Made by a program: the position numbers and the translations under genes. Shown one piece after another: positions 16,380 to 37,397 of a stretch of 37,635 bases of DNA. A model generated the notes under the pieces. That model was not told the origin of the DNA, did not search any database, and was given only the letters and a program-made list of their open reading frames with translations. Position 1 is the stretch's first letter; each line of letters opens with the position of its first letter. The DNA comes from Acidobacteriaceae bacterium (GTDB lineage: Bacteria > Acidobacteriota > Terriglobia > Terriglobales > Acidobacteriaceae): positions 1 to 37,635 of the forward strand of contig JANXZM010000106.1 in NCBI GenBank assembly GCA_025355505.1, in the 5' to 3' direction.

Positions 16380-16464
<85 letters not shown>

Positions 16465-17263: not shown

Positions 17264-18775
17264 CTACTGGCTGCCCTTCTGCCCCGCCTGGAACTTCGTC
17301 CACGGCCCTGCCTTCATGTCGCGAAGCAGTGGCTTCTGCCAGGAATATTCGGGATGCCGCTCCAGAAAGTCCGCCGCCACAAAATCCGCGCCACAAGGAT
17401 GGCCGGCGCGCGCCACGAAGCTCATATTTGCAGCCAGTTTGCTGTCCGTAGCTTTGCCCTGCACCGCTCCTCCGGGATTGTAAGCATCCCACTCCCACTC
17501 TTTCACGCCGCGCGATGAGGCATCGACGTGTCCGCAAACAGAGCGCTCGTTGGGCTGCTCTCTCTTCTCGAAGCTGTCAAAATGATCTCCCAGGAAACGC
17601 TCGGCCATCTCGACGTCAATCGTTCCCTTGGCCTGCTTCATCAATTCATCCGCGCGCGTATGCCGTGCGTTCATTGAAGATGATGTGTTATTGGGATCGA
17701 AGCCGCTGGTTTCCTCGCGGATAACCTTCGGATCGCGGGGAAAGTTTGAGCTCACGAAATATCCGTCGCTAGTGCGCCATAGCGGAGTATTCTTCAGACC
17801 GAGTTCGAGGTAGGCGATCTCGCCGGTCTTGCGGTCACCGATGAGCCAGTCGTTGGCGTAGCCCCCGTTGTTGCCATCCTTGATGATGCGCACGTAGTCG
17901 TCAATGTTCTGGGCATACTGCAGCGCCTTGCGCGAGCGCATGAATTCTGGCTTTCCGCTGGGGTCCCATCCCTCGAATTGCGTGATCGTGGTTTCCGTAA
18001 TCATGATTCCGGCCGAGTTCACCGCGAAGTCGTCGTCACTGGTGATCACTCCCGGAAACCCGTCCATGAGAATGCGCTGCCCGTTCTGTGGCACGATGTC
18101 GAAGATTGCCACCCAGCGTTCACCCGCCAGGTAGCTGGTCCAGTTGTTGTGCGCGATCACGATCTGGTGATCTTTGGTGTAGCTGCCGGTGGCGATGAAC
18201 GCGCTGCAATTGCCAGGCGCAGCTAGTTTAGGCGAGTTCGGTGACATCTCAGGTCCGTACATCACTTTCTCTTTAGCGGACTCCTTCTTCGATTTCTTGT
18301 TCAACCATGGCACGTAGTAATCCGGTACCTCCTCAAACGCATTGAGTGCCACGATGTCGTACACGTCGAGGTCCACGCCGTGAGCCTTTACACCTTCGGC
18401 GATTCCTCTCAACTCCTGCTGATATTCGGCGTCAATGTGGGGCCACAGCATCTCCCTCGCCGTCTTACGGAAGAACTCCCAGTCGCGCTGGGTTTGGCGG
18501 GTGTCGATCAAATTGATCGCTTCGAACGCGTCTTTGATCTCAGCTGCCAGCAAATATCCGTGCTGGAAGCCGATATCGGAAGGAGAGCCTTCCAGGTGAA
18601 CATACGTCCACCCGCCCTGCTGGAAGCGGTAGGCTTTTTGCAACCGCGGAACGGAAGAAGAAGTGGCGCTCTGCGGCTGCGTGGCGCACATCGATGCACC
18701 CAAGAGCACCGTAGCGAACCCTAGCGCAGCACCCGTCAACTTTGCCAAGACAAAAAAGGAACGCCAATTCATCAT
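17264..18775 (-). CDS. Secreted phospholipase B-like / C45-family Ntn hydrolase
   Basis: A 503-residue protein with an N-terminal signal (hydrophobic residues 8-28). After a propeptide-like region (40-188) comes 'APGNCSAFIATG' with the presumed nucleophile Cys190, then 'IAHNNWTSY' and 'DGFPGVITSDDDFAVNSAGIMITETT'. 'GGYANDWLIGDRKTGEIAYLELG' follows. This series matches the phospholipase B-like/PLBD fold, in which autocleavage frees an N-terminal Cys; the wider C45 group includes penicillin acyltransferase. Such enzymes cut or form linear amide or acyl bonds, so the substrate could be an N-acyl amino acid, a peptide-like amide or a lipid. The start ATG 18775 has GAGG six bases upstream; an in-frame ATG follows directly. 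It is the last gene of the minus arm, 189 bases after the FAD oxidoreductase. Confidence 0.85.
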   Translation of the reverse strand: MMNWRSFFVLAKLTGAALGFATVLLGASMCATQPQSATSSSVPRLQKAYRFQQGGWTYVHLEGSPSDIGFQHGYLLAAEIKDAFEAINLIDTRQTQRDWEFFRKTAREMLWPHIDAEYQQELRGIAEGVKAHGVDLDVYDIVALNAFEEVPDYYVPWLNKKSKKESAKEKVMYGPEMSPNSPKLAAPGNCSAFIATGSYTKDHQIVIAHNNWTSYLAGERWVAIFDIVPQNGQRILMDGFPGVITSDDDFAVNSAGIMITETTITQFEGWDPSGKPEFMRSRKALQYAQNIDDYVRIIKDGNNGGYANDWLIGDRKTGEIAYLELGLKNTPLWRTSDGYFVSSNFPRDPKVIREETSGFDPNNTSSSMNARHTRADELMKQAKGTIDVEMAERFLGDHFDSFEKREQPNERSVCGHVDASSRGVKEWEWDAYNPGGAVQGKATDSKLAANMSFVARAGHPCGADFVAADFLERHPEYSWQKPLLRDMKAGPWTKFQAGQKGSQ

Positions 18776-18964
18776 GGAATCCTCTCGATTCTAAATCCTT
18801 GCAACCACTGCCAGGCGCCATTCTAGACTAGTCTCGCATCCGCACTCGGCTCGATCCTTCCGGTCAGTTGAAAAAGAGGGTGTGCAACCGCCGATAGATT
18901 TCTTCCACTCTCGAAGCGACCGACCCCAGGCGAAACAACTGCTCTTGAAGAACTGGTCAAGACA

Positions 18965-20350
18965 CTAAGTTTGTGGCGGAATGTTTTGATTAAGCCGAAA
19001 GAAATTGCCCGGATCGTAGTGCGACTTAACCTTGACGAGGCGTGACCACCTTTCGCGGTAGGCCTCAGGGACACGGTCCTCTTCATCGCCGCTCATGAAG
19101 TTGACGTACACTCCCGGAGTCATTGAGGGTCGCAGTGATCCGAAGAGGCTACGGACCCAGGAGACGTTGGAGACATCTTCGGATACGTCCGACCAATTGC
19201 CGAGCAGATTAATCACGAACGGTGAACTGCGATCACCAAAGGCAGTGTCTGCTGCACCTACGCGTGCGGCTTCGCCGCCAAGATAGGCGAGTTCGATCTG
19301 AGTCATGGGAGAAGGAGCGCTGGAGAGGGACTGCACCATGACGTCGATTGTGTTGTCGTCGAGTGTCTTGCAGTAACCGGATTTCGTGTAATACCGGCGG
19401 CCGTGTGGGAACTCTTTATCTGCCATCGTCTGCAGGGTGAGAAAAGAGATGCTTCTTCTTGTTACTGCTCTTGGGTTGCAAAGGGAGAGGACGTGGTCGA
19501 GACAATGCCGGCCTTTTTCCATGTCACCAACCCAAACCGCCGCCTGAGTAACTACGGGACGTCCGCGTAATTCGATGGGGACAATTACAGTGTCGGGCGC
19601 AAGACGCAGGGACAGACTCCAGCGAAGATTGTCGGGCGATTCCGACATGAAATCGCGCCAACGCCGAACCAATGCCGGAATGTCATCCCCTGTGCACACC
19701 GCCTCGCCCAGCAGCACCGAGGTGACCGGATGCAGTTTTACTTCAAATTCCGTCACCACCCCAAAGTTGCCTCCACCTCCACGCAGGGCCCAAAACAAGT
19801 CTTCGTTTTCCCTCGCGTTTGCAAGAATCAGGGAGCCATTCGCGGTGACGATCGTGAATCCCTGCACGTTGTCCGAAGAGAGCCCGTAAAGGCGGGTCAG
19901 CCAACCAAACCCCCCGCCCAGGACCAATCCCGAAGCGCCGGTGTGAGAGACGACGCCGGCAGGGAAGGCGAGACCTTCTTTCTGCGTGGCAGTATCGACC
20001 GTTCCCAGCAGGCAACCGCCTGCGAAGCGACATCTTCGTGTATCCCGATCGACTCTGACTTGGCGCATGTTCGACAGATCGATCACCATTCCGTCCTCGC
20101 AAGTGCTGAACCCAGCGAGGCTGTGCCCTCCACAACGTACGGCTGTGAGGACTCCGGTGGTCGAAGCTGTCCGGACCGCAGCCTGCAGGTCGGCGACGTC
20201 AGCACAGCGGGCGATCAAGGCCGGGCGGCGGGCCACCATGTCGTTCCAGATGACTCGGGCGGGCTCGTACTGCGGATCATTGGGACGCAATAGATCGCCG
20301 CGGAATTGTTGTTGTAGGGCCCGGTAAACCTCGTTCGTCGATTCCTTCAT
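18965..20350 (-). CDS. FAD-binding oxidoreductase, berberine-bridge-enzyme type
   Basis: A 461-residue PCMH/VAO-type flavoenzyme with a C-terminal BBE segment. The FAD-binding part shows 'RCGGHSLAG' with H76, the expected 8-alpha-histidyl-FAD attachment, then 'GASGLVLGGGFGWLTRLYGLSSDNV' and 'DLFWALRGGGGNFGVVTEFEVKLHPV'. Double-linked members have a Cys in the segment before 'DNV', where this protein has Ser, so a single covalent His link is expected. The C-terminus 'YRERWSRLVKVKSHYDPGNFFRLNQNI' is the BBE signature. Members oxidise sugars, alcohols or amine-type substrates with O2. No signal peptide, so cytoplasmic. It lies 35 bases downstream of gntR and is probably co-transcribed. Its start lacks a strong ribosome binding site. 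Confidence 0.9.
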   Translation of the reverse strand: MKESTNEVYRALQQQFRGDLLRPNDPQYEPARVIWNDMVARRPALIARCADVADLQAAVRTASTTGVLTAVRCGGHSLAGFSTCEDGMVIDLSNMRQVRVDRDTRRCRFAGGCLLGTVDTATQKEGLAFPAGVVSHTGASGLVLGGGFGWLTRLYGLSSDNVQGFTIVTANGSLILANARENEDLFWALRGGGGNFGVVTEFEVKLHPVTSVLLGEAVCTGDDIPALVRRWRDFMSESPDNLRWSLSLRLAPDTVIVPIELRGRPVVTQAAVWVGDMEKGRHCLDHVLSLCNPRAVTRRSISFLTLQTMADKEFPHGRRYYTKSGYCKTLDDNTIDVMVQSLSSAPSPMTQIELAYLGGEAARVGAADTAFGDRSSPFVINLLGNWSDVSEDVSNVSWVRSLFGSLRPSMTPGVYVNFMSGDEEDRVPEAYRERWSRLVKVKSHYDPGNFFRLNQNIPPQT

Positions 20351-20385
20351 GGATTTATGCCCGGGGGAAACGCCACGCCGTGGCT

Positions 20386-21087
20386 TTAGGTTACGCCGGA
20401 GGATCCTGTCAGTCGGAGGACCTTACTCTTGGACTGAAGGATGTGATCGTTCATGTGCTTGCGTGCTGCATCGGGGTTATGCTCGACGATGGCTTTCATG
20501 ATCGCTCTATGCTCGCGGGTGGGCACTTCGCCAAAATAGTGGATATCGATCGCCGCGTACATGATGCGCTCCATTTGGCAACGTGCTTCATTGACGGCCC
20601 TGATCAGCATCTGATTGCGCGACAGACGTGCAATCCCGACATGGAAAACGGTATCGGCTTCAATAAATTGCATGTAGCTTTCAATGCTATCCGTCCGGTA
20701 AGACGTCTCGGCCAGCTCTACTAATTGCCGGAGCAGTTCTGTGTCCGTAGCCTTTCTGGCCGCCAGTTCAGCTGCCGCGCATTCAACCGCAGCGCGGTAT
20801 TCGTAGATATCAGTCAGTTCCTGTAGAGTAATCTGGCTCACGAAATAACCGCGGTTCGGCACGATACGGAGCAACCGATCCTCTTGCAGTCGCAGCGCGG
20901 CCTCGCGCACTGGCGTCCGGCTGGCCCTATATTTTTTCGCTAGATATTTCTCGGACAGAGGCTCACCCGCAGGGTGGACGCCCCGGACGATGTCCCGCTT
21001 CATCGCCTTATAGACTTTCACACTGAGTTTGTCACCAACGCCGGATGCCCGCGCGGTGCGAGTCCGCTTGCGACTTACAGCTTTCAC
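20386..21087 (-). CDS. GntR-family (FadR/FCD) transcriptional regulator
   Basis: A 233-residue regulator. The start is GTG 21087, chosen because GGAGG lies seven bases upstream; an ATG seven codons earlier lacks a site. Residues 20-85 form the winged helix: 'KLSVKVYKAMKRDIVRGVHPAGEPLSEKYLAKKYRASRTPVREAALRL' across the usual GntR consensus, with 'TPVREAL'-like core. Residues 90-220 are the FCD effector domain, with acidic and His residues (D145, H149, the 'TREHRAIM' His) that often hold a metal and a carboxylate ligand. FCD members usually sense small organic or amino acids. It sits inside the minus arm between the M61 peptidase and the FAD oxidoreductase, so it is the likely regulator of both arms. 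Confidence 0.92.
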   Translation of the reverse strand: MKAVSRKRTRTARASGVGDKLSVKVYKAMKRDIVRGVHPAGEPLSEKYLAKKYRASRTPVREAALRLQEDRLLRIVPNRGYFVSQITLQELTDIYEYRAAVECAAAELAARKATDTELLRQLVELAETSYRTDSIESYMQFIEADTVFHVGIARLSRNQMLIRAVNEARCQMERIMYAAIDIHYFGEVPTREHRAIMKAIVEHNPDAARKHMNDHILQSKSKVLRLTGSSGVT

Positions 21088-21167
21088 CACTATCCCTCCA
21101 CGTCCCATTTGCCATGGCCTATAGCTCGCCAGACTTTGAGAAAGTAGTTGTGCGAGCCGCTTCTGTC

Positions 21168-21182
21168 TGATTTATTAGATCA
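21168..21182. promoter_or_regulatory. Imperfect palindrome upstream of gntR
   Basis: TGATTTATTAGATCA is a 15-base imperfect palindrome in the 115-base gap between the M61 gene and gntR, about 80 bases before the GTG start. It could be an autoregulatory operator. A related GATCATGATC palindrome lies at 26722-26731, downstream of the plus-arm promoter. Similarity between the two is modest. Confidence 0.3.
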
Positions 21183-21202
21183 CATCCAAGCGCGTGCCCA
21201 GA

Positions 21203-23128: not shown

Positions 23129-23164
23129 GAGTTAGAACCTCCCCGTCCAAACCTTAAGAATCCC

Positions 23165-26100: not shown

Positions 26101-26410
26101 GAGAGGTCGTGATATCGGTGACCACGGTTGTGCCGAACCCCTGTTTGGTGATGGTTAATCGGAAGGTGCCGAGCGCCAACTCCGGAAAATTGAAGTTTCC
26201 GGTGTTGTCCGTCGTGACAGTGCGCTCCAATCCCGTGGTTGGATTGGAAAGCTTGACCGTGGCGCCAGAAACAACCGCGCTTTGTGTGTCCCGTACCGTT
26301 CCGGAGATTCGGCCAGGGAAAAACTGCGCGACCGAACTTGCGGCGCAGAGAGTAATCATTACGACAAGCAACGAAGCGAAACGAAGAAACACGGTCCTGA
26401 GGCTAGCCAT
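23165..26410 (-). CDS. TonB-dependent receptor with carboxypeptidase-regulatory-like domain (minus arm)
   Basis: A 1081-residue outer-membrane protein. The start is ATG 26410 with AAGGAG five bases upstream, giving a signal peptide ending near 'SSVAQ'; a longer upstream frame is not needed. Residues 30-120 form a CarboxypepD_reg-like beta-sandwich ('GRISGTVRDTQSAVVSGATV'). A plug region ('SLPIGNSDYTRLALVLPGV', 'INGSRSRSNGFNIDGASD') and a long beta-barrel follow. The C-terminus ends in Trp after 'IQLMGKL', the aromatic end expected for BAM-inserted barrels. This Oar-like receptor type is greatly expanded in Acidobacteriota and imports oligomeric nutrients. It heads the minus arm, directly upstream of the M61 peptidase. 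Confidence 0.92.
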   Translation of the reverse strand: MASLRTVFLRFASLLVVMITLCAASSVAQFFPGRISGTVRDTQSAVVSGATVKLSNPTTGLERTVTTDNTGNFNFPELALGTFRLTITKQGFGTTVVTDITTSQGLVNNISPVLAVGSVSSQIEVTSTPPLIQTETNSTGGQLSEVQVESLPIGNSDYTRLALVLPGVTQNSNFAFAQYTINGSRSRSNGFNIDGASDTDPSTYLPSINEGGNSATAATRLPLDAIEEVSVSANAGADSGQNSGSVMNVTIRSGTNNFHGSVYELHRNAALDAANFFENLGGVPKAHFVWNEFGGTVGGPIYIPHFYDGRNRTFFFAGYDGSRLRLGTTLNGNAPSPAQIQTATNLVQSQSITPNQLGLNIVGLYSSLGLSGPFVVDNRGQQSPNSGVLKIDHRISNSDSLSARYLHGVGEDEFPGGGPGPGGGSQLGSWFGVTPTMADNFAISEVHLFSPGLINTLRLGWNRFSQFQKGRDANVNPAAIGFNTGVGPQSYGLPEVDTYGFSNLGLQYGAGGRVATSYQIADEANWTRGAHAWRFGFNFLHNYSNYTLAGGRGIFSFTGSQLGDGLTSDSALASLIDLVAGLPTPGSGLTQITRVGSPRANIDQNIISGFAMDTYKITQRLTLVAGLRYDFFTTVNESRHRFSVFDPSQGLVQTSHLYNAPKGNFGPRVSLAWAPTTSLIPGHQTVFRAGFGIYYDTIPLTNFEEGLAQNPIGPTAGFTIVPNAPIPFGVAVPIFGTGAPQPPFNIVSIQRNLKTPNSQEWNVNIQQELSQRFVFQIAYVGNHSIHQLQLLDINQPSLGAGYGPGCINPPSFDCEQAARPYNAKYPTLSQINTISTPGFAHYHSLQASLKSNDFHGLTTQISFTWSHNMDTASEVEDFFGTSGYVPQDSTNLKGSYGNSEFDQRRSLIITYVYAIPHPKTNNALGYALKDWQLSGTTTLRAGLATPLLTFGDESGVGNFHTRFNCVGPIHYQLRDFTQPYASVSSFSDPAPGTFGNCPRNPLVAPGLNAWDVSFQRTFKMGERFAFQFRTSFFNAFNHPNFAEPSPDISTRIGATADDGSFDSHFGVGGPRNIQLMGKLTW

Positions 26411-26441
26411 GGTTGCTCTCCTTGAACGAATGCGCGGGCCA

Positions 26442-26471
26442 AAAGTACCGCTCACCGGTTTGCTATGTCAA
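26442..26471 (-). promoter_or_regulatory. Putative promoter of the minus arm
   Basis: On the minus strand TTGACA (26471-26466) is followed after 18 bases by TACTTT (26447-26442), 31 bases before the receptor ATG. The -10 is embedded in GCGGTACTTTTG, identical to the 12-mer at the plus-arm promoter. The paired architecture supports both. Confidence 0.55.
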
Positions 26472-26675
26472 GAGAATTAAATGGATATACCCAAACGCCA
26501 TCAAAACATCGACACACGCGGTACATGTCGAGTTCATGTTGCTCGTGTCAGACGGACTGATCGGCGTCGTTTGTACGGTCGCAATGCTGTGGATATAGGG
26601 GTAGGAGAGATCCAATCGCTTTGCGCAAGCCGTAGCTTCACAATGCATACCGAGTGCATATCACTGAAAATCACC

Positions 26676-26704
26676 TTGACATTGCCGGCGGTCGGCGGTA
26701 CTTT
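26676..26704 (+). promoter_or_regulatory. Putative promoter of the plus arm
   Basis: TTGACA (26676-26681), 17-base spacer, TACTTT (26699-26704), inside GCGGTACTTTTG (26695-26706). The 5' leader to the GTG start would be about 70 bases and includes the palindrome GATCATGATC (26722-26731), a candidate operator. The rest of the 26411-26778 gap holds no gene. Confidence 0.55.
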
Positions 26705-26778
26705 TGCGCCCACTGAATGTGGATCATGATCGCTGGCGAAAGCGCGCCATCATAGCCACAAAAAGAGACGAGGGGTAC

Positions 26779-27948
26779 GTGACCCAGAGCATGGCTGATT
26801 TTCGCAAGCGCTTCCCAGTCCTGTCGGAGAAAATTTATCTCAATAGTTGTTCCCAAGGAGCACTTTCCCAGGACGTGGAAGAGGGCATGCTCGAATACCT
26901 GCGCAGTTGGCACCAACACGGTTCTCCCTGGGACCTGTGGGTCGATCAGTACGAGGCCGGGCGCCGTCACTTTGCAGAGTTAATCAACGCTGAACCGGAA
27001 GAGGTTGCTCTGGTTGCCAGCGCCTCGGCTGGCGTCAATGCGTTCGCCAGCGCCTTGTCGTTCAAGCAGCGGAACAAGGTCGTGCTTGGCGAATTTGAAT
27101 TTCCCACCATGGGGCACATCTGGCTGGCGCAGCGTCCCCGCGGAGCGGACGTGACCTTTGTTGGGGCGGAGAAGAACCGGATTGCGGTGGAAGCCTATGA
27201 CCGGCTTGTGGATCGTAATACCTTGGTCGTCCCTCTGACTCATATGTGCTTCATGAACGGTTTTCGTAGCCCGGTCGCCGAAATTACGAAAATTGCGCAT
27301 GATCGCGGCGCCATGGTGCTTCTGGATGACTACCAGGACAGCGGAACTCGCCCGATCGATGTGAAAGCCATGCAGGTGGACGCCTATGTGAGCGGGACTT
27401 TGAAGTATCTGCTTGGGCCGCCAGGCCTCGCCTTCATGTACGTGCGCAAATCGATCGCGGAATCGTTGGTGCCGACAGTCACCGGTTGGTTCGGTCAGAG
27501 GAATCCTTTTGCGTTCGACGTAAAACTCTTTGATCCTGCCCCGGGTACGCGGCGATTTGAGTCGGGGACACCTCCCATCCCGACTATTTATGGCGCGATC
27601 GCGGGAGTCAAACTCCTGCAGCAGTATGGGTTGCAAAATGTGGCAGACCAGATTCGCTCCCTAACGAATGCTCTGATCCGTGGTGCTTCCGAACTTGGGA
27701 TTCAGATGAAGACGCCACTCGATAGCGTGGGACCGCTGGTCGTCCTGCAATCCAAGGATGCCGATGGCCTGGTTCGCCTGTTCGCCGAGGATGGTGTGGT
27801 TTGTTCCAGTCGGCACGACGGCCTGCGGATTTCTTTTCACGCCTACAACACTCTGGATGATGTGAAGTTTGTGCTCCGCTTGTTACAACAGAACCTTAAG
27901 ATGCTGGTCACGGCGCCGGCTGAGACCGTTGCCGGAAGCGCGTCCTAA
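26779..27948 (+). CDS. Class V aminotransferase-fold PLP enzyme (first copy)
   Basis: A 389-residue fold-type I PLP protein related to the SufS/isopenicillin N epimerase/kynureninase group. Key positions from the GTG start are 'SASAGVNAF' (phosphate region near residue 81), the PLP aspartate in 'LLDDYQDSG' (D183/D184) and the Schiff-base lysine K209 in 'SGTLKYLLGPPGLAF'. The C-terminal 'LRISFHAYNT' is typical. Start choice: GTG 26779 has GAGG five bases upstream, while ATG 26791 is 17 bases away; the latter would lose four residues. There is no signal peptide, so it is cytoplasmic. It is the first gene of the plus arm, 25 bases before the amidohydrolase. Reaction (epimerase, lyase, aminotransferase) cannot be decided from sequence. 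Confidence 0.88.
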   Translation: MTQSMADFRKRFPVLSEKIYLNSCSQGALSQDVEEGMLEYLRSWHQHGSPWDLWVDQYEAGRRHFAELINAEPEEVALVASASAGVNAFASALSFKQRNKVVLGEFEFPTMGHIWLAQRPRGADVTFVGAEKNRIAVEAYDRLVDRNTLVVPLTHMCFMNGFRSPVAEITKIAHDRGAMVLLDDYQDSGTRPIDVKAMQVDAYVSGTLKYLLGPPGLAFMYVRKSIAESLVPTVTGWFGQRNPFAFDVKLFDPAPGTRRFESGTPPIPTIYGAIAGVKLLQQYGLQNVADQIRSLTNALIRGASELGIQMKTPLDSVGPLVVLQSKDADGLVRLFAEDGVVCSSRHDGLRISFHAYNTLDDVKFVLRLLQQNLKMLVTAPAETVAGSAS

Positions 27949-27973
27949 CAGCGGTAAGAACAGGAGGACGATC

Positions 27974-29338
27974 ATGGTCTTCGGCATCAGTTATCACGGA
28001 TGGTTTCGTAGAAGCCGCCGATCGGCTTGTACTCTGCTCCTTGTCATTGCAAGCTTTCTTACCCGAGAAGCCTTTGCCGAGGACGCGAAGCCAGGGCAGA
28101 CCGTGATCGTGCGGGCCGGGCAGCTTTTTGATCCGCTGGCCGGTCGCATGCTGGACCAGCCCGTGATTGTGATCGTTGGGAACAAGATTACTGCCGTCTC
28201 CAACGGAAACACACCTTCCATCTTGGGTGCCACGCTCATCGATCTCGGAGATGCGACGCTTCTTCCCGGATTCATCGATGTCCACACGCATCTGACGTCC
28301 GATGCAGGCGGCGGCGGATACGAGGGGCTGGGCATCTCTGCGCCTCGTGCCGCACTCATCGGCGCGAAAAACGCCCGGCGCACGCTGCTTGCCGGATTTA
28401 CCACGGTGCGCAATGTGGGTGCGGAAGGTTACTCGGATGTGGCTCTCCGCGACGCCATTAATGCCGGAGACGTGATGGGCCCGCGCATGCAGGTGTCAGG
28501 CCCTCCCCTGGGGATCACTGGTGGACACTGCGACAGCAGCCTATTGCCATTTGAATTTCATTATTCCGCCGAAGGCGTGGCAGATGGTCGCGAAGCGGTG
28601 ATGCATCGTGTGCGTGAGGTGATCAAGTACGGCGCCGATGTCATCAAGTTTTGCGCGTCCGGTGGCGTTTTTTCGAAAGGCGATAACCCGTTGCTCGAGC
28701 AGTATAGTCCCGAGGAAATGAGAGTCTTGGTCGAGGAGTCGCACCGGCTTGGTCGCAAAGTCGCGACTCATGCTCACTCTGCGATTTCAATCAAGGATGC
28801 GGTGCGTGCCGGTGTGGATTCGATTGAACACGGCATTTTCCTGGACGACGAAAGCATTGCCCTAATGAAAGAGCACAACACGTTTCTTGTGCCCACTTCT
28901 TACCCACTCTTCTGGTTCGAGGAACACGCGCCCCAGATGCATCTCCCGCCCTGGGTAATGGAAAAGTCCGCCATCATCATTCCCGCAGCCAAGAAGAACA
29001 TGGCGAAGGCCTTTCGCGCCGGTGTCCGCGTCGCTCTCGGAACCGATGCCGGTGTCTATCCACACGGTCTGAATGGCGGTGAGTTCTGGGCCATGGTCGA
29101 GCTTGGGTTGACTCCGACGCAGGCGCTGCAGAGCGGCACGGCGAATGCCGCGGAGTTAATGGGATGGTCCGATCGCATCGGAGCCATTCGCGAAGGCATG
29201 TTTGCCGACATGGTCGCAGTGAAGGGTGACCCGCTGCGGGACATTCAGCTGCTGCAAGATGTCCAATTTGTGATGAAGGATGGCGTTGTTTACAAGAACG
29301 AGATCTCGGGACCAAACCGAGCCACGCAAACGCATTGA
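27974..29338 (+). CDS. Secreted metal-dependent amidohydrolase (Xaa-Pro/Xaa-Arg dipeptidase-like)
   Basis: A 454-residue amidohydrolase-superfamily protein. The start is ATG 27974 with a perfect AGGAGG six bases upstream. Residues 15-35 form a signal peptide ending near 'EAFAEDA'. Metal and catalytic residues are H104/H106 in 'FIDVHTHLTSD', carbamylated-lysine candidate K225 in 'ADVIKFCASGG', H266/H268 in 'VATHAHSA', H286 in 'DSIEHGIF', and D358 in 'VALGTDAG'. The pattern matches the imidazolonepropionase-like/prolidase-like branch, including enzymes that cleave C-terminal Pro, Arg or other residues from dipeptides and N-acyl amino acids. It is 25 bases after the PLP gene and 70 before the receptor, in one apparent operon. 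It would act in the periplasm on imported substrate. Confidence 0.9.
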   Translation: MVFGISYHGWFRRSRRSACTLLLVIASFLTREAFAEDAKPGQTVIVRAGQLFDPLAGRMLDQPVIVIVGNKITAVSNGNTPSILGATLIDLGDATLLPGFIDVHTHLTSDAGGGGYEGLGISAPRAALIGAKNARRTLLAGFTTVRNVGAEGYSDVALRDAINAGDVMGPRMQVSGPPLGITGGHCDSSLLPFEFHYSAEGVADGREAVMHRVREVIKYGADVIKFCASGGVFSKGDNPLLEQYSPEEMRVLVEESHRLGRKVATHAHSAISIKDAVRAGVDSIEHGIFLDDESIALMKEHNTFLVPTSYPLFWFEEHAPQMHLPPWVMEKSAIIIPAAKKNMAKAFRAGVRVALGTDAGVYPHGLNGGEFWAMVELGLTPTQALQSGTANAAELMGWSDRIGAIREGMFADMVAVKGDPLRDIQLLQDVQFVMKDGVVYKNEISGPNRATQTH

Positions 29339-29408
29339 GGATCGGGATGGTGGCATAGTTGGCTCAAACGAAACGGCATCAGCAAAGAATCTCATCGAGG
29401 GGTGGAGT

Positions 29409-32400
29409 ATGTGGACATCCAAGTTGAACCGAGTGCTTTTCTTCGTCGTTGTGCTGCTCGTCAGCGAAGTTTCTGCACAAACCACGCAAGGCGGCATTGT
29501 CGGCGGAATTCGAGACCAAAAAGGCGCTCAAATCGTTGGTGCGAAAGTGACGGTGACCACTCCCTCCACCGGTCTGCAACGCGAGACCAGCACCGCCGAC
29601 AACGGAATCTACCGCGTCAATGCGCTCCCGATTGGGGTTTACCAGATCAAGGCGGAAGCGGCAGGTTTCGCCACCAGCACAATAACGGGCGTCGAAGTTG
29701 GCATCGACCAAGTCCGTACCGTCGATATTATGCTGCGTGTCGGGTCGAAAGCGGAGGTCGTCGAAGTACGGGCTGACGCAACATTGACCCAGACCGAAAC
29801 TTCCAAACTCGGAGAGATCATCGACAATCGTAAGGTCGAGGATTTGCCACTCAACGGGCGCGATTTCGCACAATTAGCGCGTCTGAACCCGGGAGTGGCC
29901 AGCTCCGGCGGCGGCGGAGGCCAGCAGGGTGGAGAGGGTGGAGTGTCGGGTTTCTCTTCCAATGGGCAGCGATCGACCGCCAATAACTTCCTGGTCGATG
30001 GCGTTGACAACAACGATTCCTTTGGCGGAACGTCAGCGCAGATACCCTCGATCGATTCCATTCAGGAGTTCGAAGTTCAAACCAACACTTTCTCGGCTGA
30101 ATATGGGCGAAACACCGGATCCGTTGTGAACCTGGTAACGAAGTCGGGATCCAATCGTTTGCATGGATCCGTTTATGAGTTCTTCCGCAACGATGTGTTG
30201 GACGCCAGAAACTTCTTCAATGAGTCGGACTTCGCCAAGTCGGCGTTGCACCTAAACCAGTTTGGTGGGACGCTGGGAGGGCCGATCGTTAAGAACAAAA
30301 CATTCTTCTTTTTGAATTACGAAGGTTTCCGACGCCAAGCGGGAATCACTCGAATCACGAATGTGCCTACTTTGGCGGAACGCCAGGGCCAATTCCTTGA
30401 CAACAATGGCGACCCGATCACGATCGCGGTCAATCCGGTAAGCGCCCAGATTTTTGACACCTTGTTTCCTCAACCTAATCTGACCGGTTCCTCGGGCAAC
30501 TTCGTTTCATCTCCCACCCAGCGCGACGCCACCGACCAATTCCTCGTGAAAGTGGACCACCACCTGCGAGGTTCCGACACGCTATCAGCGCGTTACAGCC
30601 GGACGCGGGTTGATATTTTCTTTCCTTTCACTCCGGGACAGAGCGGAACCAACATTCCCGGGTACGGAGTGAACGACAACGGAGCCAATCATCTTGTTGC
30701 TTTGTCGTACACCCGCGTAATCAGCCCAAGGACTCTGAATGAGGCGCGATTTGGATTTACGCGCTCCAACATCTTACTCGCCACCGAAGCCGGGCCACAG
30801 GCCGCGACTTTCGGCTTCAATACCGGCTGGCCGGCCAATTCAACCCTAAACCTGGGAAACATTCCGCAGGTGGCTTTCGCCGGAGGTTTTGTCGGGGGTG
30901 GTTCATCGATCACCAATCTGGGCGGAGGAATCGACCAGCCCAATCGTACCGCAACGAACACTTTCCAGTTGATCGACAATCTTTCGCACACCACCGCAAG
31001 ACACTCGTTCAAGGTCGGTGGCGATATTCGCTACCAGCAACTCAACCGCTTGTATGACCTCGCCTTCAGCGGGCAAATCACCTTCAGCGGATTGGATAAT
31101 CTCGCCGGAACCGACAGCGGTGGAGATCCGGTGAACATCCCGAATGCCCTGATCGACTTTGCGCAAGGTATTCCCGACGGCGCGCTGCAGTTCGTGGGTG
31201 ACTCTCATCGCAACTTCCGTAGCAGCAGCTACGGACTGTTCGCGCAAGACACCTTCAAGCTACGGCACAATGTAACGCTGAACTACGGCTTGCGCTACGA
31301 ACTAAACACGGTTTTGCATGAAGCCCACGGGCGGCTCAGTTCCTGGCGCCCGCAGAACTACACAACCTACTTGGATCCCACCAATCCGAATATCCAGAAT
31401 GACCTGGCGGCCCTGCAGGCGTCCGGGGTGGTCACACAGGGGCAGGTCGGTGGCATTTACGACGGCGACCACAATAACTTCGCTCCCCGCGTCGGAATAG
31501 CTTGGGACCCTTTCGGTAAGGGAAAAACGGTGCTGCGCACGGGCTACGGGTTGTTCTACGAAACCATTATCGGCAACATCCCAGGTAACGTGATGCTCAA
31601 CCCACCGTTCCTGCCTGACTTCTTCACTCCTTTTCCCTTTGCAAGCTGGCCAAACCCCTTCGGCCCCTCTGGATTTCCGGTACTCACGATCACGCAGCAG
31701 AAGCTGCGAACGCCGTACGCTCAGCACTTCAACTTCGGTGTCCAGCAGCAACTGCCTGGGCGCATGTTGCTGGACGTTGCTTACGTAGGAACAACTGGCA
31801 CCAAGTTGCCGCGTTTCGTGCAGATCGATCAGGCATACATCACGAAGCAGCAGATCGATACGCTGAAGCTGCCCGACGTGCCGGGAGTTCCTGCTGTGGT
31901 CGCGCGTATGGAACTCATCGGAATTCCTGCTGGGGTTGCGCAGTTCCTATACGACAACCAACTCTGGGGGGCCATGCCGAGCATTGTGCGAACGCCTTAT
32001 TTTGGTTTTGCTCAGTTGTTCCAGGCTCAGGACTCTGTGAGTTCGAATTACCATAGCCTCCAAGTAAAACTGGACAAAAGTTTCAGCAACGGACTTTCGT
32101 TCCTCGCGTCGTACACCTGGTCACATTCGATCGACGGAGCTTCCGTATTCTTCGGATCCGGGGCGAATGCCACCACCATTTTTCCGCAAAACAACTACAA
32201 TCTGGCGGCAGAGCGCGGCAACTCGGACTTCGACATCCGGCAGCGACTAAGTTGGAGCTTTAACTATGAACTACCCGTGCTCCGCAGCTTGCCCAAATTG
32301 ATCGGTCAAGGTTGGCAAGTGGGCGGTATCCTAACGCTACAGACCGGACAGCCCTTCTCGGTTCTGACTGGTAAGGGATTGAGCGGTACTGGACTTGGTA

Positions 32401-32777
32401 ACGACCGGCCGGACCTGATCAGCGATCCCAACACCGGTCCCCGCACCGTCCAAAAATGGTTCAACACGGCTGCATTCGTTGACAACCAGCCGCTTACCTT
32501 CGGCAACTCCGGACGAAACATCGTTCTTGGACCCGGCTATCGTGATTTCGATTTCTCGATCCTGAAGAACATGAAGTTTGCCGAGAAGTGCAACGCGCAG
32601 TTCCGTGCCGAGTTTTTCAACATTACCAACCATCCCAGCTTTGCTTTGCCCAGCAACATTTCCGCGGCACCCAATTTTGGAGCGCTCTTCACAACTCCTG
32701 ATGCCGCCCAAAATAACGTCGGTCTCGGATCAGGCGGACCAAGACTGATCCAGTTTGCGTTAAAGCTCAGTTTCTGA
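29409..32777 (+). CDS. TonB-dependent receptor with carboxypeptidase-regulatory-like domain (plus arm)
   Basis: A 1122-residue outer-membrane receptor of the same Oar-like type as the minus-arm one. The start is ATG 29409, giving 'MWTSKLNRVLFFVVVLLVSE' and a signal peptide ending near 'VSAQ'; GAGGGG lies six bases upstream. A CarboxypepD_reg domain ('GGIVGGIRDQKGAQIVGAKV'), a plug with 'DLPLNGRDFAQLARLNPGV' and 'NNFLVDGVDNNDSFGG', and the barrel follow. It ends in Phe after 'LIQFALKLS'. The two island receptors are clearly diverged in the barrel, so they may handle different parts or sizes of the substrate. The stop overlaps the next start by one base (TGATG), pointing to translational coupling with the MBL-fold hydrolase. 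Confidence 0.92.
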   Translation: MWTSKLNRVLFFVVVLLVSEVSAQTTQGGIVGGIRDQKGAQIVGAKVTVTTPSTGLQRETSTADNGIYRVNALPIGVYQIKAEAAGFATSTITGVEVGIDQVRTVDIMLRVGSKAEVVEVRADATLTQTETSKLGEIIDNRKVEDLPLNGRDFAQLARLNPGVASSGGGGGQQGGEGGVSGFSSNGQRSTANNFLVDGVDNNDSFGGTSAQIPSIDSIQEFEVQTNTFSAEYGRNTGSVVNLVTKSGSNRLHGSVYEFFRNDVLDARNFFNESDFAKSALHLNQFGGTLGGPIVKNKTFFFLNYEGFRRQAGITRITNVPTLAERQGQFLDNNGDPITIAVNPVSAQIFDTLFPQPNLTGSSGNFVSSPTQRDATDQFLVKVDHHLRGSDTLSARYSRTRVDIFFPFTPGQSGTNIPGYGVNDNGANHLVALSYTRVISPRTLNEARFGFTRSNILLATEAGPQAATFGFNTGWPANSTLNLGNIPQVAFAGGFVGGGSSITNLGGGIDQPNRTATNTFQLIDNLSHTTARHSFKVGGDIRYQQLNRLYDLAFSGQITFSGLDNLAGTDSGGDPVNIPNALIDFAQGIPDGALQFVGDSHRNFRSSSYGLFAQDTFKLRHNVTLNYGLRYELNTVLHEAHGRLSSWRPQNYTTYLDPTNPNIQNDLAALQASGVVTQGQVGGIYDGDHNNFAPRVGIAWDPFGKGKTVLRTGYGLFYETIIGNIPGNVMLNPPFLPDFFTPFPFASWPNPFGPSGFPVLTITQQKLRTPYAQHFNFGVQQQLPGRMLLDVAYVGTTGTKLPRFVQIDQAYITKQQIDTLKLPDVPGVPAVVARMELIGIPAGVAQFLYDNQLWGAMPSIVRTPYFGFAQLFQAQDSVSSNYHSLQVKLDKSFSNGLSFLASYTWSHSIDGASVFFGSGANATTIFPQNNYNLAAERGNSDFDIRQRLSWSFNYELPVLRSLPKLIGQGWQVGGILTLQTGQPFSVLTGKGLSGTGLGNDRPDLISDPNTGPRTVQKWFNTAAFVDNQPLTFGNSGRNIVLGPGYRDFDFSILKNMKFAEKCNAQFRAEFFNITNHPSFALPSNISAAPNFGALFTTPDAAQNNVGLGSGGPRLIQFALKLSF

Positions 32778-33652
32778 TGAGGGCGTATTTGCGAAACTTC
32801 AGATTTCTTGGCGTACTTCTTCCGTTGATCTGCTCTACGCTGGTTTCGGCTGAATCGGCGGTCACGCAGATTGGTAAGGGTCTTTACGCCTACATCTCCG
32901 ACAGCGATGCCAGCGCAAATTCCACTTTTCTTGTCGGCGACGCGGGCATCTTGGTGGTTGACACGGGGCTCAATGCAACTGAAGCCTCCAAATTGCTCGG
33001 AGCCATCCGGCGAATCTCGGCCTTGCCCGTGAAGTTTGTTGTGAACACGCACTATCATCCGGATCATCAAGGGGGGAACGCGGTGGTTGGGCCATCGGCG
33101 ACCGTAATCAGCACAGATTTCACCCGGGAACGTACGATGGCAATTCAAGGGAATCCAGGTATGACGTCCTTTCACTTTGAGCCTGCGAACCTGACTTTTC
33201 AGCAACAAATCACATTGCACCTCGAACCGTATACTGTCCAAATCTATTTTCCGGGCAAAGCGCATACCTCTGGAGACGCCCTGGTCCACTTCCCGGAACA
33301 GCGTGCGATTTCCATGGGAGATCTGTTCCTGAACCGCTCATCACCGGCCATGGACGACGGTAGCGTCGAAAGTTGGATTCATGCTCTGGACAATGTTCTG
33401 GAGTTGCCATTAGACAACGTCGTCCCGGGCCACTTTGAACTCGCGAAGAAATCGGAGTTAAAGCGGTTTCGCGATTACCTCAACGATCTGTACGAGCAGG
33501 TGCGGGTCTTGAAGCAAAAAAACGAAACTCTCGAACAGGTGCGGCACGACATTCATATGGAGAAGTACTCCGATTTCAGACAGAATGCGAAGTACGAAGC
33601 GACTTTTGCCGATAACGCCACCGTCATTTACCAGCAAATGCATGCGCATTAA
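32777..33652 (+). CDS. Secreted metallo-beta-lactamase-fold hydrolase
   Basis: A 291-residue MBL-fold protein with an N-terminal signal peptide (about residues 8-25, ending 'VSAES'). All metal ligands for a dinuclear site are present: H92, H94, D96 and H97 in 'NTHYHPDHQGG', H163 in 'GKAHTSGD', D182 in 'SMGDLF' and H219 in 'VPGHFE'. The fold covers beta-lactamases, thioesterases, lactonases and other hydrolases; the sequence alone does not say which. An extended C-terminal helix (about 225-290) is not in classical beta-lactamases. The ATG overlaps the receptor stop by one base and the gene ends two bases before the next start, so it is tightly coupled in the operon. Confidence 0.9.
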   Translation: MRAYLRNFRFLGVLLPLICSTLVSAESAVTQIGKGLYAYISDSDASANSTFLVGDAGILVVDTGLNATEASKLLGAIRRISALPVKFVVNTHYHPDHQGGNAVVGPSATVISTDFTRERTMAIQGNPGMTSFHFEPANLTFQQQITLHLEPYTVQIYFPGKAHTSGDALVHFPEQRAISMGDLFLNRSSPAMDDGSVESWIHALDNVLELPLDNVVPGHFELAKKSELKRFRDYLNDLYEQVRVLKQKNETLEQVRHDIHMEKYSDFRQNAKYEATFADNATVIYQQMHAH

Positions 33653-33654
33653 AA

Positions 33655-34905
33655 ATGCCAAACTCACATTTCCCAATCGATTCCATACGACAACTATTCC
33701 CGGCCTTGAATACTGGGGACCACTTTACATTCTTTGACAACGGTGCAGGAGCACAGATACCCCAGTCGGTGCTCGACGCGGTCAGCCATCACCTTGTGTC
33801 TTGTAATGTGCAGCGCGGCGGCCGCTATCGCCACAGTCGGGAAGTCGATGCGTCTATACAGCAAGCCCGGCAGAGCGTGGCCACATTGCTGAATGCGCGC
33901 GAACCATCTGAGGTGGCATTCGGCATGAACGCTACTTCATTTATTCGTATCGTCAGCCTGGCCGTCTCCGAGATTCTCGGGAAACGAAAAGAAATCATTG
34001 TGTCTGATCTGGACCATGAAGCGAACATCGCCACCTGGCTTGCGCTGCAGAGCAAAGGCGTGGATATCCGCTGGTGGAAGATGCGGGAAGATGGCACCCT
34101 CCACGTGGAAGACTTGGAACCTCTCCTAAGCTCTCGCACTCGTCTTGTGGCGTGTGCGGTAGCGTCCAACGCGTTAGGATCAATCGTCAACGTGAAAGAA
34201 GTCGCGCGCATGGTGCACGCGGCAGGAGCCGAGGTGTTTCTGGACGCGGTTCACTACGCTCCGCACGGCGTCATCGACGTGCAGGACTGGGATTGCGACT
34301 ACCTGGTCTGTTCAGGCTATAAAATCTTTGCGCCCCACATGGGGTTCCTTTGGGGCAAGCGCGAGCTTCTGGAAGCATTGCCAACCTTTCGCGAGGATTT
34401 CATACCCGACGAGATTCCCGGCAAGATCGAGGTAGGCACCTTCGTATATGAGAACGTGGCTGGTATGAATGCCGCTGTTGGCTATCTGGAAGAATTGGGT
34501 CGAGGCTTGCTTGCAGATTCGCTTTCCGCTTCTCCACGCGAACGCTTAGTGACTGCGATGGAGGCGATTCGGGGCTACGAAGCGACGTTGTCTACAGAAA
34601 TTCTGCGAGCCTTAGCGGGACTCGACGGTGTTGTCGTGTACGGAATTCGAGAGCCGAGTCAACTTGCGTATCGTGTGCCAACAATTTGTTTCAATCTGAA
34701 TGGAGTACCCGCTGCCCATGTGGCCGCTTTCTGCGCGGAAAACGGAATCGGCGTGCGGGATGGAAATATGTACTCACCACGTCTCCTGCGCCGCATGGGA
34801 ATCCCTTCAGAAACTGGAGCCGTTCGGGCATCGCTCGTCCACTACAACACCGTCGAGGAAATCGGCAAGTTTGTCGATGCATTGCGGCATGTCCCGCGCA
34901 ATTAG
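33655..34905 (+). CDS. Class V aminotransferase-fold, cysteine desulfurase-like protein (second copy)
   Basis: A 416-residue PLP protein of the cysteine-desulfurase-like group (the VC1184-type family). Features are 'FFDNGAGAQIPQSVLDAV' near the N-terminus, H121 in 'SDLDHEANIATW', the PLP aspartate D197 in 'VFLDAVHYAPHG', and the Schiff-base K223 in 'CSGYKIFAPHMG'. The C-terminus has 'VRASLVHYNTVEEI'. The mobile-loop Cys needed by true SufS/NifS desulfurases is absent: the corresponding stretch reads 'GIGVRDGNMYS'. It probably acts as an epimerase, lyase or aminotransferase rather than a sulfur donor. It starts two bases after the MBL gene and ends 39 bases before the permease. The two PLP enzymes of this operon are distinct subfamilies, suggesting successive steps. 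Confidence 0.88.
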   Translation: MPNSHFPIDSIRQLFPALNTGDHFTFFDNGAGAQIPQSVLDAVSHHLVSCNVQRGGRYRHSREVDASIQQARQSVATLLNAREPSEVAFGMNATSFIRIVSLAVSEILGKRKEIIVSDLDHEANIATWLALQSKGVDIRWWKMREDGTLHVEDLEPLLSSRTRLVACAVASNALGSIVNVKEVARMVHAAGAEVFLDAVHYAPHGVIDVQDWDCDYLVCSGYKIFAPHMGFLWGKRELLEALPTFREDFIPDEIPGKIEVGTFVYENVAGMNAAVGYLEELGRGLLADSLSASPRERLVTAMEAIRGYEATLSTEILRALAGLDGVVVYGIREPSQLAYRVPTICFNLNGVPAAHVAAFCAENGIGVRDGNMYSPRLLRRMGIPSETGAVRASLVHYNTVEEIGKFVDALRHVPRN

Positions 34906-34944
34906 TCGAAACGGATACTCGGGTCAAAGAAGGTCAGGTGCTGC

Positions 34945-36363
34945 TTGGACAAATCTTCAGCCGGTTCTGTGTCGCATCCAGATATGAGCACGGCCACTCC
35001 GCCAAAGGAATCCGGAGAACTCCAGCGCCGCCTGAATTCCCGACAGCTCACCATGATCGCCATCGGCGGAGCGATCGGTGTAGGCCTGTTCCTGGGCAGC
35101 AGCGTCACCATTGAGCTTGCGGGCCCAGGCATCATCATCAGTTATCTGATCGGCGCTCTGGTAGCGGTGGTGATGGCGTACGCACTCGCTGAAATGGCAG
35201 TTGTCCATCCGGTGGCTGGTTCGTTCGGCATCTACGCCGAGACCTACCTCAGTCCATGGGCAGGTTTTACCGTGAGAGCGACCTACGGGCTCGTGCAAAT
35301 CATAGCTATCGGTGCCGAAGTAACGGCTGTAGCCATCTATTTTGGATTCTGGTTTCCTCGTGTACCGGGTTGGGAATGGATATTTCTGGTGTCCGCCGCC
35401 CTGGTAACCATCAACGCCCTGCAGGTCGGCAATTTCGGTGAATTTGAGTATTGGTTTGCCCTCATTAAGGTTCTTGCCATTATTGTTTTTATCGCGGTCG
35501 GCCTACTACTCATCACCGGACTGGGCCCATGGCCCGCTGTGGGGCTGGCGAACCTCACCAGCCACGGGGGCTTTCTGCCTCATGGTTGGCGCGGAGTTTG
35601 GCTGGCGATGTCTCTAGTCATCACGAGTTACATGGGAGTGGAAGTAATCGCAGTGACTGCGGGTGAGGCTCAGAACCCGTCCGTGAGCATTCCCCGAGCA
35701 ATGCGCACGATCGTCTATCGGCTCATCATTTTCTATTTATTGGCCATCACGGTCATGCTGGCCATGACTCCATGGAACCGCACCGGAAGTGCGAGCATCG
35801 TCGGTAGTCCTTTTGTGCGCGCTTTCGAAACCGCAGGGATTCCGTTTGCCGCAGGCATCATGAACCTGGTTGTAATCACGGCAGCGCTTTCCAGTGCGAA
35901 CACAAACTTGTACCTTTCAACACGCATGTTGTTCTCGCTATCAAGGGGAAGCTATGCCCCGGGTTGGCTGGGTCGTCTTAGTACGAGGGGCGTTCCGCAC
36001 CGGGCTCTGGCAGTCTCGAGTGCAGGAATGGTGGCTGCCATTCTTCTGGCACTGTTGGCGCCAAAGAACGCTTTCCTCTTACTCTACGGCACGGCAGTCG
36101 CAGGCATGTTCTATGTGTGGGGCGTCATTCTGGTTACGCATTTGCGATTTCGCCAAAGGATCAGTTCCGAGGCCCTTTCTGCGCTTCCACTGCGACTACC
36201 TTTACATCCCTGGCCCACCGTGTTTGCAATTCTGGCGCTCTCCGGCATTGCGCTGAGCACGTTTTGGGTCAATGGGCTGGTATACACGATTCCCACATTC
36301 TTGCCGCTGTTGGCGGTGATGTCTTTGATTTATGGTGTTTATCGATCGAGACATCGAAGTTGA
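34945..36363 (+). CDS. APC-family amino-acid permease
   Basis: A 472-residue, about 12-TM transporter of the amino acid/polyamine/organocation superfamily (AAT-like, as in GABA, D-alanine/glycine or Arg permeases). TM1 carries the unwound-helix motif 'IGGAIGVGLFLGSS'; 'GIIISYLIGALVAVVMAYALAEMAVVHPVAGSFGIYAETYL' covers TM2 and the conserved following loop. Later segments show 'TAGEAQNPSVSIPRAMRT' after TM6. TTG 34945 is supported by an AGG-rich site; the alternative ATG 34984 gives a more usual N-terminus but has no ribosome binding site. It imports the released amino acid into the cytoplasm. It is the last gene of the plus arm. Confidence 0.92.
   Translation: MDKSSAGSVSHPDMSTATPPKESGELQRRLNSRQLTMIAIGGAIGVGLFLGSSVTIELAGPGIIISYLIGALVAVVMAYALAEMAVVHPVAGSFGIYAETYLSPWAGFTVRATYGLVQIIAIGAEVTAVAIYFGFWFPRVPGWEWIFLVSAALVTINALQVGNFGEFEYWFALIKVLAIIVFIAVGLLLITGLGPWPAVGLANLTSHGGFLPHGWRGVWLAMSLVITSYMGVEVIAVTAGEAQNPSVSIPRAMRTIVYRLIIFYLLAITVMLAMTPWNRTGSASIVGSPFVRAFETAGIPFAAGIMNLVVITAALSSANTNLYLSTRMLFSLSRGSYAPGWLGRLSTRGVPHRALAVSSAGMVAAILLALLAPKNAFLLLYGTAVAGMFYVWGVILVTHLRFRQRISSEALSALPLRLPLHPWPTVFAILALSGIALSTFWVNGLVYTIPTFLPLLAVMSLIYGVYRSRHRS

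Positions 36364-37343: not shown

Positions 37344-37397
<54 letters not shown>

What the first reader, a model, noticed from the sequence alone, without database searches (positions are those of the whole stretch)
17264..36363. Two-arm receptor-hydrolase-PLP-permease locus: a candidate undescribed catabolic system
Eleven genes form one divergent unit. It holds two TonB-dependent receptors, four secreted hydrolases of unrelated families (M61, amidohydrolase, MBL fold, PLB/C45), two different class V PLP enzymes, a BBE flavoenzyme, an amino-acid permease and an FCD regulator. This combination matches no standard pathway I know and follows an import, trim, import, convert logic for an amide- or peptide-linked amino compound.
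Basis: inference. Interest (0 to 1): 0.7.

Follow-up and report, generated by a model that had tools for sequence, protein, structure and literature searches.

The report
Recurring acidobacterial amino-compound utilisation locus
An eleven-gene block in a mobile island of a soil acidobacterium belongs to a rearrangeable but recurring gene set, apparently under one shared control switch, that looks built to take up and break down an unidentified amino compound.

Summary
They lie in a 20.9-kb island bounded by 54-bp copies of the tRNA-Pro end. The central claim holds: the set recurs elsewhere. Of 19 other loci with an ortholog of PLP enzyme J, all 19 have a K-type permease (18 within 1.3 kb), 8 have F, 7 B, 6 H and I, 5 C, 3 D, E and G, and none A. 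Of 20 loci with 37-44% paralogs of J, none has A-D, F, G, I or K. Both arms start with near-twin promoters; the operator-promoter motif occurs in 7 of 8 fetched loci with regulator C, 0 times in 1.40 Mb of other fetched loci and once in the 4.16-Mb genome, though the pattern was built from those sites.

Most likely: outer-membrane uptake, periplasmic peptide/amide hydrolysis, import by K, carbon-carbon cleavage by J and F, oxidation by EncM-like B. Substrate and chemistry are inferred. J lacks the cysteine-desulfurase cysteine; F resembles kynureninase but fails its cut-off; a tryptophan/kynurenine-type substrate is one option. I file it as a new variant of receptor-hydrolase-importer loci, not a new class.

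The parts
16411..16464 (+). left 54-bp direct repeat, 3' end of tRNA-Pro(CGG) 16380-16456 (attL-like)
   Evidence: identity of the two copies rechecked
37344..37397 (+). right 54-bp direct repeat, exact copy of the tRNA end (attR-like)
17264..18775 (-). A: C45/phospholipase-B-type Ntn hydrolase (GNCSAF present); not found in other loci
   Evidence: 0 of 19; motif
18965..20350 (-). B: EncM-like covalent-flavin oxygenase/oxidase (FAD_binding_4 + BBE)
   Evidence: in 7 of 19 other J loci
20386..21108 (-). C: GntR/FCD regulator, presumed regulator of both arms
   Evidence: in 5 of 19 other J loci, plus L091 and L094
21203..23128 (-). D: M61 peptidase (HEFTH)
   Evidence: 3 of 19, plus L094
23165..26410 (-). 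E: Oar-like outer-membrane receptor; listed ORF reaches 26455, start revised to 26410
26442..26491 (-). promoter of the E arm: half-operator GGTATATCC, -35 TTGACA (26471-26466), 18-bp spacer, -10-like TACTTT (26447-26442)
26645..26704 (+). operator-promoter of the F arm: GCATACC-N4-GCATAT, -35 TTGACA (26676-26681), 17-bp spacer, -10-like TACTTT (26699-26704)
26791..27948 (+). F: class V PLP enzyme, kynureninase-like pocket motif GWFG; listed ORF starts at 26704, start revised to 26791
27869..29338 (+). G: amidohydrolase of the Xaa-Pro dipeptidase/arginine carboxypeptidase/ochratoxinase group; the first ATG is inside the listed ORF
29280..32777 (+). H: second Oar-like outer-membrane receptor
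   Evidence: 6 of 19
32777..33652 (+). I: metallo-beta-lactamase-fold hydrolase (HYHPDH)
   Evidence: 6 of 19
33655..34905 (+). J: class V PLP enzyme of the TIGR01976 (VC1184) family, Tyr where desulfurases have the catalytic Cys
34945..36363 (+). K: amino-acid permease of the APC type
   Evidence: 19 of 19
36720..36920 (-). excisionase-like HTH_17 gene remnant of the island; its N-terminal part reads in another frame (36809-36934)

Best explanation
It is a horizontally mobile utilisation locus of Terriglobia (Acidobacteriota) for an amino compound that arrives bound in a peptide or amide. Two Oar-like receptors (E, H) bring the bound form across the outer membrane. Periplasmic hydrolases (D M61 peptidase, G amidohydrolase with carboxypeptidase/N-acyl-amino-acid type relatives, I metallo-hydrolase, here also A of the C45 type) release an unusual free amino acid. 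Permease K imports it. The cytosolic PLP enzymes J and F, which are not cysteine desulfurases, cleave the side chain next to the amino acid's beta carbon (Cbeta-Cgamma cleavage as in kynureninase and FGM3), giving alanine and a small aldehyde or acid. Flavoprotein B oxidises the side-chain part. Regulator C acts on near-twin promoters that start both arms. Shown: gene content, recurrence, the J+K core, the conserved operator-promoter, the tRNA island. Inferred: export of the hydrolases, direction of transport, bond cleaved, role of B, and C as the binder of the operator.
For: Families. J orthologs in 18 of 399 class genomes incl. own and one tree clade, 100/99. K next to J in 18 of 19 other loci within 1.3 kb and a 52% K-type permease 3.5 kb away in the 19th; other members in 3-8 of 19. 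Paralog control 0 of 20 for A-D, F, G, I, K. B orthologs (65-67%) were found in 2 of the 296 other phylum genomes and both carry J next to K. K at 64% or more in 16 other class genomes, 15 of which carry the J ortholog. Operator-promoter in 7 of 8 C loci, 0 in 1.40 Mb of other fetched loci, once in own genome. Tyr at the desulfurase Cys position in 19 of 19 J-ortholog rows with a letter there, Cys in both SufS-like rows. Nearest solved relative of J is FGM3, which PMC10367076 (passages) describes as a retro-aldol PLP enzyme; kynureninase is the second entry for F. G's nearest solved relatives are arginine carboxypeptidases and ochratoxinase-type amidohydrolases. B keeps EncM H78, L116, L117, V135, V136, H138, T139, L144.
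Against: No substrate evidence. J aligns to FGM3 with Phe225 at the Tyr two residues after the PLP lysine, probably the base proposed for FGM3 (numbering differs by one), so its reaction may differ. F scores 59.6 bits against the kynureninase cut-off of 246.4, and its nearest solved entry is a cysteine desulfurase, 92 bits. The closest characterised relatives of B and J (EncM, FGM3, UstD) are biosynthetic. PMC6389888 (passages) reports that deleting fgm3 did not stop fusaoctaxin A production. The members are shuffled between genomes and only J+K is constant. The consensus scan found fewer sigma-70-like sites than shuffles (3 against 9.2) and did not list either proposed promoter, whose -10 TACTTT matches the consensus at 3 of 6. 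The operator pattern was derived from the sites it then found, and the E-side site shows only one clear half.
Confidence: 0.5

Rival explanations
1. A tryptophan/kynurenine-side branch: the imported compound is kynurenine or a related aryl-keto amino acid, F (and J) act as kynureninase-type enzymes and the flavoprotein oxidises the aromatic product.
For: In G391 a tryptophan 2,3-dioxygenase-like ORF ends within a few bases of F (PF03301, 95.5 bits). PF04199 cyclases, the fold of bacterial kynurenine formamidase, lie near J, F or K in L036, L068, L073, L078 and L089. F aligns with kynureninase 1qz9 and shares its GWFG stretch.
Against: F fails the kynureninase cut-off (59.6 of 246.4 bits); the cyclase scores 28.9 of 223 bits against arylformamidase and the dioxygenase-like ORF 119.5 of 390.7 against TIGR03036. 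The dioxygenase link is one genome of 15 with F. The own genome has a better kynureninase candidate on another contig (154 bits, also below cut-off). F has Leu where 1qz9 has Tyr before the PLP lysine.
Confidence: 0.2
2. A biosynthetic or tailoring cluster: J, F and B make or modify a noncanonical amino acid or small peptide and K exports it or a precursor.
For: The nearest solved relatives of B (EncM) and of J (FGM3, with UstD lower in the list) come from natural-product pathways.
Against: No NRPS, PKS, ligase or carrier gene was seen in the window; two receptors, three to four hydrolases and an APC-type permease fit uptake; FCD regulators mostly control catabolism (recalled). Neighbours elsewhere include LLM oxygenase, molybdenum-hydroxylase subunits and a ThDP decarboxylase pair.
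Confidence: 0.13
3. Several separate scavenging cassettes (receptor plus peptidase; permease plus PLP enzyme; regulator) that tend to sit together because they are co-mobilised, without one shared substrate.
For: Membership varies between loci; in G307 the C-E-D-F part and the J-K part lie on different contigs; F-K pairs occur without J in G562, G339, G332 and G454. Related tRNA-Pro site in the sibling genome carries unrelated cargo.
Against: Operator-promoter motif shared by loci with C, in front of F, G, a receptor gene, J or E; G589 and L032 keep 9-10 members together away from the tRNA.
Confidence: 0.12
4. A sulfur- or phosphonate-type route: J removes sulfite or a similar group from a cysteine-derived amino acid (cysteine-sulfinate-type chemistry needs no catalytic cysteine, recalled).
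For: The ThDP pair near J in L036, L068 and L078 scores as sulfopyruvate/phosphonopyruvate decarboxylase-like (135.5 of 147.95 bits for alpha, 131.8-137.4 of 221.5 for beta); C's best NCBIfam hit is a phosphonate-associated regulator (95.6 of 271.5 bits).
Against: All these scores are below their cut-offs; the pair is absent from the window and seen in 3 loci.
Confidence: 0.05

Closest known systems
TonB-dependent receptor-coupled utilisation loci (PUL-like, Oar/SusC-type)
   Same: outer-membrane receptors, exported hydrolases, inner-membrane importer, degradative enzymes and a regulator encoded together
   Different: peptidase/amidohydrolase set with an APC amino-acid permease, two class V PLP enzymes and an EncM-like flavoprotein; no glycoside hydrolases in the block
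FGM3 / UstD (class V PLP lyases of fungal peptide biosynthesis)
   Same: J's best solved relative is FGM3 (201 bits); shared (Y/F)S-x-RL region where desulfurases have Cys
   Different: bacterial, permease-linked; Phe at the position of the proposed FGM3 base; forms its own clade within TIGR01976
Kynureninase (KynU)
   Same: F aligns over about 300 residues with 1qz9 including GWFG
   Different: 59.6 bits against cut-off 246.4; Leu in place of the Tyr before the PLP lysine
EncM (enterocin FAD oxygenase, flavin N5-oxide)
   Same: 463 bits over 450 residues; flavin-linking His and O2-pocket residues kept
   Different: sits with an amino-acid permease and PLP enzyme, not with a polyketide pathway; N5-oxide not shown
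Arginine carboxypeptidase Cc2672 / ochratoxinase-type amidohydrolases
   Same: G matches 3mtw at 334 bits and ochratoxinase-group entries at 159-288 bits
   Different: just under the NCBIfam Xaa-Pro dipeptidase cut-off (488.9 of 500); substrate untested

Membership tests
Cysteine desulfurase (SufS/CsdA/IscS), for J and F | catalytic Cys in the C-terminal loop; score above family cut-off | tested here: not met
   J: Tyr in 19 of 19 ortholog rows with a letter there; J 246.9 of 475.1 and F 117.2 of 475.1 bits on TIGR01979. The Cys loop of F was not counted row by row.
TIGR01976 (VC1184, 'cysteine desulfurase-like'), for J | score above curated cut-off | tested here: met
   518.3 bits, cut-off 352.35. 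The family has no stated function; a search for its names found one unrelated paper.
Kynureninase, for F | TIGR01814 score above cut-off | tested here: not met
   59.6 of 246.4 bits; three other rows scanned gave 154.7 (own paralog), 76.2 and none listed at E<=1e-10
EncM-type flavin-N5-oxide enzyme, for B | flavin-linking His78 and dioxygen-pocket residues V135, V136, T139 (L116, L117, H138, L144) | tested here: met
   alignment; residues named in PMC7662398 passages; kept in 8 of 8 rows that cover them, a ninth row being truncated
EncM-type flavin-N5-oxide enzyme, for B | formation of the N5-oxide and oxygenation | not testable with these tools
   needs spectroscopy of purified B
Receptor-coupled utilisation locus | receptor, exported hydrolase, importer, regulator in one recurring neighbourhood | tested here: met
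   window, L032 and G589 hold all kinds together; G630 all with only a 52% permease; most of the 19 loci hold subsets
Receptor-coupled utilisation locus | growth on the substrate depends on the locus | not testable with these tools
   no cultured strain or substrate known
tRNA-integrated genomic island | direct repeat of the tRNA end at the far boundary | tested here: met
   54-bp perfect repeat, 20,933 bp apart
tRNA-integrated genomic island | own integrase gene | tested here: not met
   no integrase among the ORFs of the island; only an HTH_17 excisionase-like remnant. The sibling's element has both.

The most novel reading that the evidence does not exclude
An undescribed bacterial pathway in which two class V PLP lyases that have lost desulfurase chemistry cleave the side chain of an imported noncanonical amino acid and an EncM-type flavin-N5-oxide enzyme, so far known from antibiotic biosynthesis, works in its catabolism, all under one FCD regulon that spreads between acidobacterial families on tRNA islands.
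Probability: 0.22. Interest if true: 0.72.

Novelty: new variant of a known kind. Interest (0 to 1): 0.45.

Why it matters
Acidobacteria are abundant in soil and much of their receptor and PLP-enzyme repertoire has no assigned substrate. A recurring, apparently co-regulated set with a constant permease-PLP core gives a short list of enzymes to assay and an operator sequence to test. It would give a first functional handle on the TIGR01976 family and show whether EncM-type oxygen chemistry is used in catabolism.

Tried and rejected
Chance collection of island genes: rejected by J-K recurrence against the 0 of 20 paralog control. Some control contigs are short (L111, L122, L123), and weak receptor hits of 26-34% occur there, as they do widely.

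Cysteine desulfurase for J: rejected on the missing Cys. Plain kynureninase for F: rejected as membership, kept as resemblance. Beta-lactam breakdown (C45 + MBL fold + epimerase-like PLP): considered; I scores under the class B cut-offs and A is not part of the recurring set.

Structure prediction of F and J from two-row alignments gave unusable models (mean pLDDT 31.9 and 35.4), so no fold search was run. The J search of viral contigs found no relative. The genome-contig scan with F gave L032 and three distant loci. Plasmid relatives of J and F are all under 60% identity; neighbours in the eight regions opened include amino-acid ABC transporters, a dihydropyrimidinase, D-amino-acid-dehydrogenase-like oxidoreductases and M24 peptidases, suggestive but not decisive. 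Paper searches listed no description of this gene set; one search returned nothing; the library is open-access only.

Dropped rows: the tree left out ORFs with internal stops or outside 340-470 aa (69 rows kept; F orthologs not a single clade because long-branched L084 falls inside; the 13-row Terriglobia F clade has 98/94). Identity limits were 40-55% by gene. Several of the 19 loci are cut by contig ends (L059 4.7 kb, L078 10.4 kb, L070 11.4 kb, L067 12.1 kb), so absences are upper limits on true absence. Some fetched loci overlap, so 1.40 Mb counts a little sequence twice.
Full report
What is there. The window is a whole contig of a 4.16-Mb, 119-contig genome. Eleven ORFs lie at 17264-36363 in two divergent arms: E-D-C-B-A on the minus strand, F-G-H-I-J-K on the plus strand. 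The set lies between two perfect 54-bp repeats, the first being the 3' end of tRNA-Pro(CGG), 20,933 bp apart. GC is 55.8% inside and 58.9% in the left flank. The island holds no integrase ORF; an HTH_17 excisionase-like remnant reads in two frames near 36720-36934. In the same-genus genome G500 the matching tRNA-Pro has a 48-bp repeat about 16.5 kb away and between them a different cargo: integrase, HTH_17 gene and a type I restriction-modification set. G500 had no J, K or F match at the limits. So the site is an integration site used by different elements.

Does the set recur? J orthologs (54% identity or more) occur in 18 of 399 class genomes including the own one, plus G229 (4.7-kb contig) from the phylum search and L032, a named Terriglobia MAG. 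J orthologs form one clade, 100/99. Around the 19 loci other than the window: K-type permease 19, of which 18 lie within 1.3 kb and one (G630) is a 52% homolog 3.5 kb away; F 8; B 7; H 6; I 6; C 5; D 3; E 3; G 3; A 0. L032 keeps C-D-E and F-G-H-I-J-K in the window's order and orientation. G589 keeps ten members (all but A) but with F behind E-D and B convergent with K. In G307 C-E-D-F and J-K are on different contigs. Control: 20 loci with J paralogs (37-44%) had none of A-D, F, G, I, K and only weak receptor hits. K at 64% or more was found in 16 other class genomes, 15 of them with the J ortholog; the exception G562 has F beside K. F at E<=1e-90 was found in 15 of 299 class genomes including the own one; a K-type permease stands beside F without J in G562, G339, G332 and G454. 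No tRNA was found in 11 of the fetched loci tested. In the phylum set B orthologs were found only in G084 and G257 besides the own genome at 65-67%, the next being 44% or less, and both have J and K beside it.

Shared control. Both arms begin with TTGACA and TACTTT in closely similar settings: plus strand 26676-26704 with a 17-bp spacer, minus strand 26471-26442 with 18 bp. In front of the F arm lies GCATACC-N4-GCATAT (26645-26661). A pattern of two such halves and TTGACA was found in 7 of 8 fetched loci with a C ortholog (all but L091), in front of F, G, a receptor, J or E; in 0 of 1,403,821 bases of the other loci; and 0.015 times per shuffle on average, at most once (200 shuffles). The looser pattern P1 gave 8 and 1. 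In the whole own genome it occurs once, at 26646. The pattern was built from these sites, so this is a test of specificity rather than an independent discovery. The general promoter scan did not list these promoters and found fewer sites than its shuffles. That C binds here is inference. The operator lies upstream of -35, which would suit activation.

What the enzymes may do. J belongs to TIGR01976 (518 bits, cut-off 352), but a Tyr replaces the desulfurase Cys in 19 of 19 ortholog rows with a letter there; two SufS-like rows have Cys. Its best solved relative is FGM3, described in PMC10367076 (passages) as a retro-aldol PLP enzyme; J has Phe at the likely position of the proposed base. F resembles kynureninase in a stretch with GWFG but scores 59.6 of 246.4 bits. 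B matches EncM at 463 bits and keeps the flavin-linking His and the pocket residues listed in PMC7662398 (passages) in 8 of 8 covering rows. G matches arginine carboxypeptidases and ochratoxinase-type amidohydrolases. These suggest release of a free amino acid outside the cytoplasm, import by K, Cbeta-Cgamma cleavage and oxidation of the side chain. The steps are inference.

Substrate hints. A tryptophan dioxygenase-like ORF precedes F in G391. PF04199 cyclases occur near J, F or K in five loci, and a split ThDP decarboxylase pair in three. LLM oxygenase and FCD genes flank J-K-B in G395 and F-K in G562, with molybdenum-hydroxylase subunits in G562 by Pfam and in G395 by eye. None reaches an equivalog cut-off that would name a pathway.

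Verdict. New variant of a known kind of locus.

Noticed in passing
window 1057-2886 and 3021-4586 (-): Two neighbouring paralogs join an N-terminal stretch that weakly matches a response-regulator receiver (21.2 and 19.8 bits, below cut-off 30.2) to a TonB C-terminal domain: an unusual TonB layout.
   Followed up: no
L109 (G500:C18:247500-266700): The same tRNA-Pro site in a same-genus genome carries an element with integrase, HTH_17 gene and type I restriction-modification genes.
   Followed up: partly
window 36720-36934 (-): Excisionase-like HTH_17 gene of the island reads in two frames, and no integrase ORF is present: the island looks immobile by itself.
   Followed up: partly
L063 1046-4204, L072 10820-13924, L073 2935-9370, L077 6097-9228, L091 11546-17850: Large BNR/Sortilin-type proteins of about 1040 aa recur between members of the module (Pfam on L063 and the first of L091; the rest by clustering or by eye).
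   Followed up: partly
L036, L068, L078: A PF04199 cyclase next to a split sulfopyruvate/phosphonopyruvate-decarboxylase-like ThDP pair beside the J core.
   Followed up: partly
L093 8019-8756: Short tryptophan 2,3-dioxygenase-like ORF directly before F in G391; the own genome has a similar short one on C59.
   Followed up: partly
L036 (G084) B gene: B has one in-frame TGA in G084, so it may be broken there or the read may be wrong.
   Followed up: no
L082, L084, L085 (plasmids): 35-40% relatives of F on plasmids stand near FAD oxidoreductases of the D-amino-acid-dehydrogenase kind; M24/Xaa-Pro peptidases are also near in L082 and L084.
   Followed up: no
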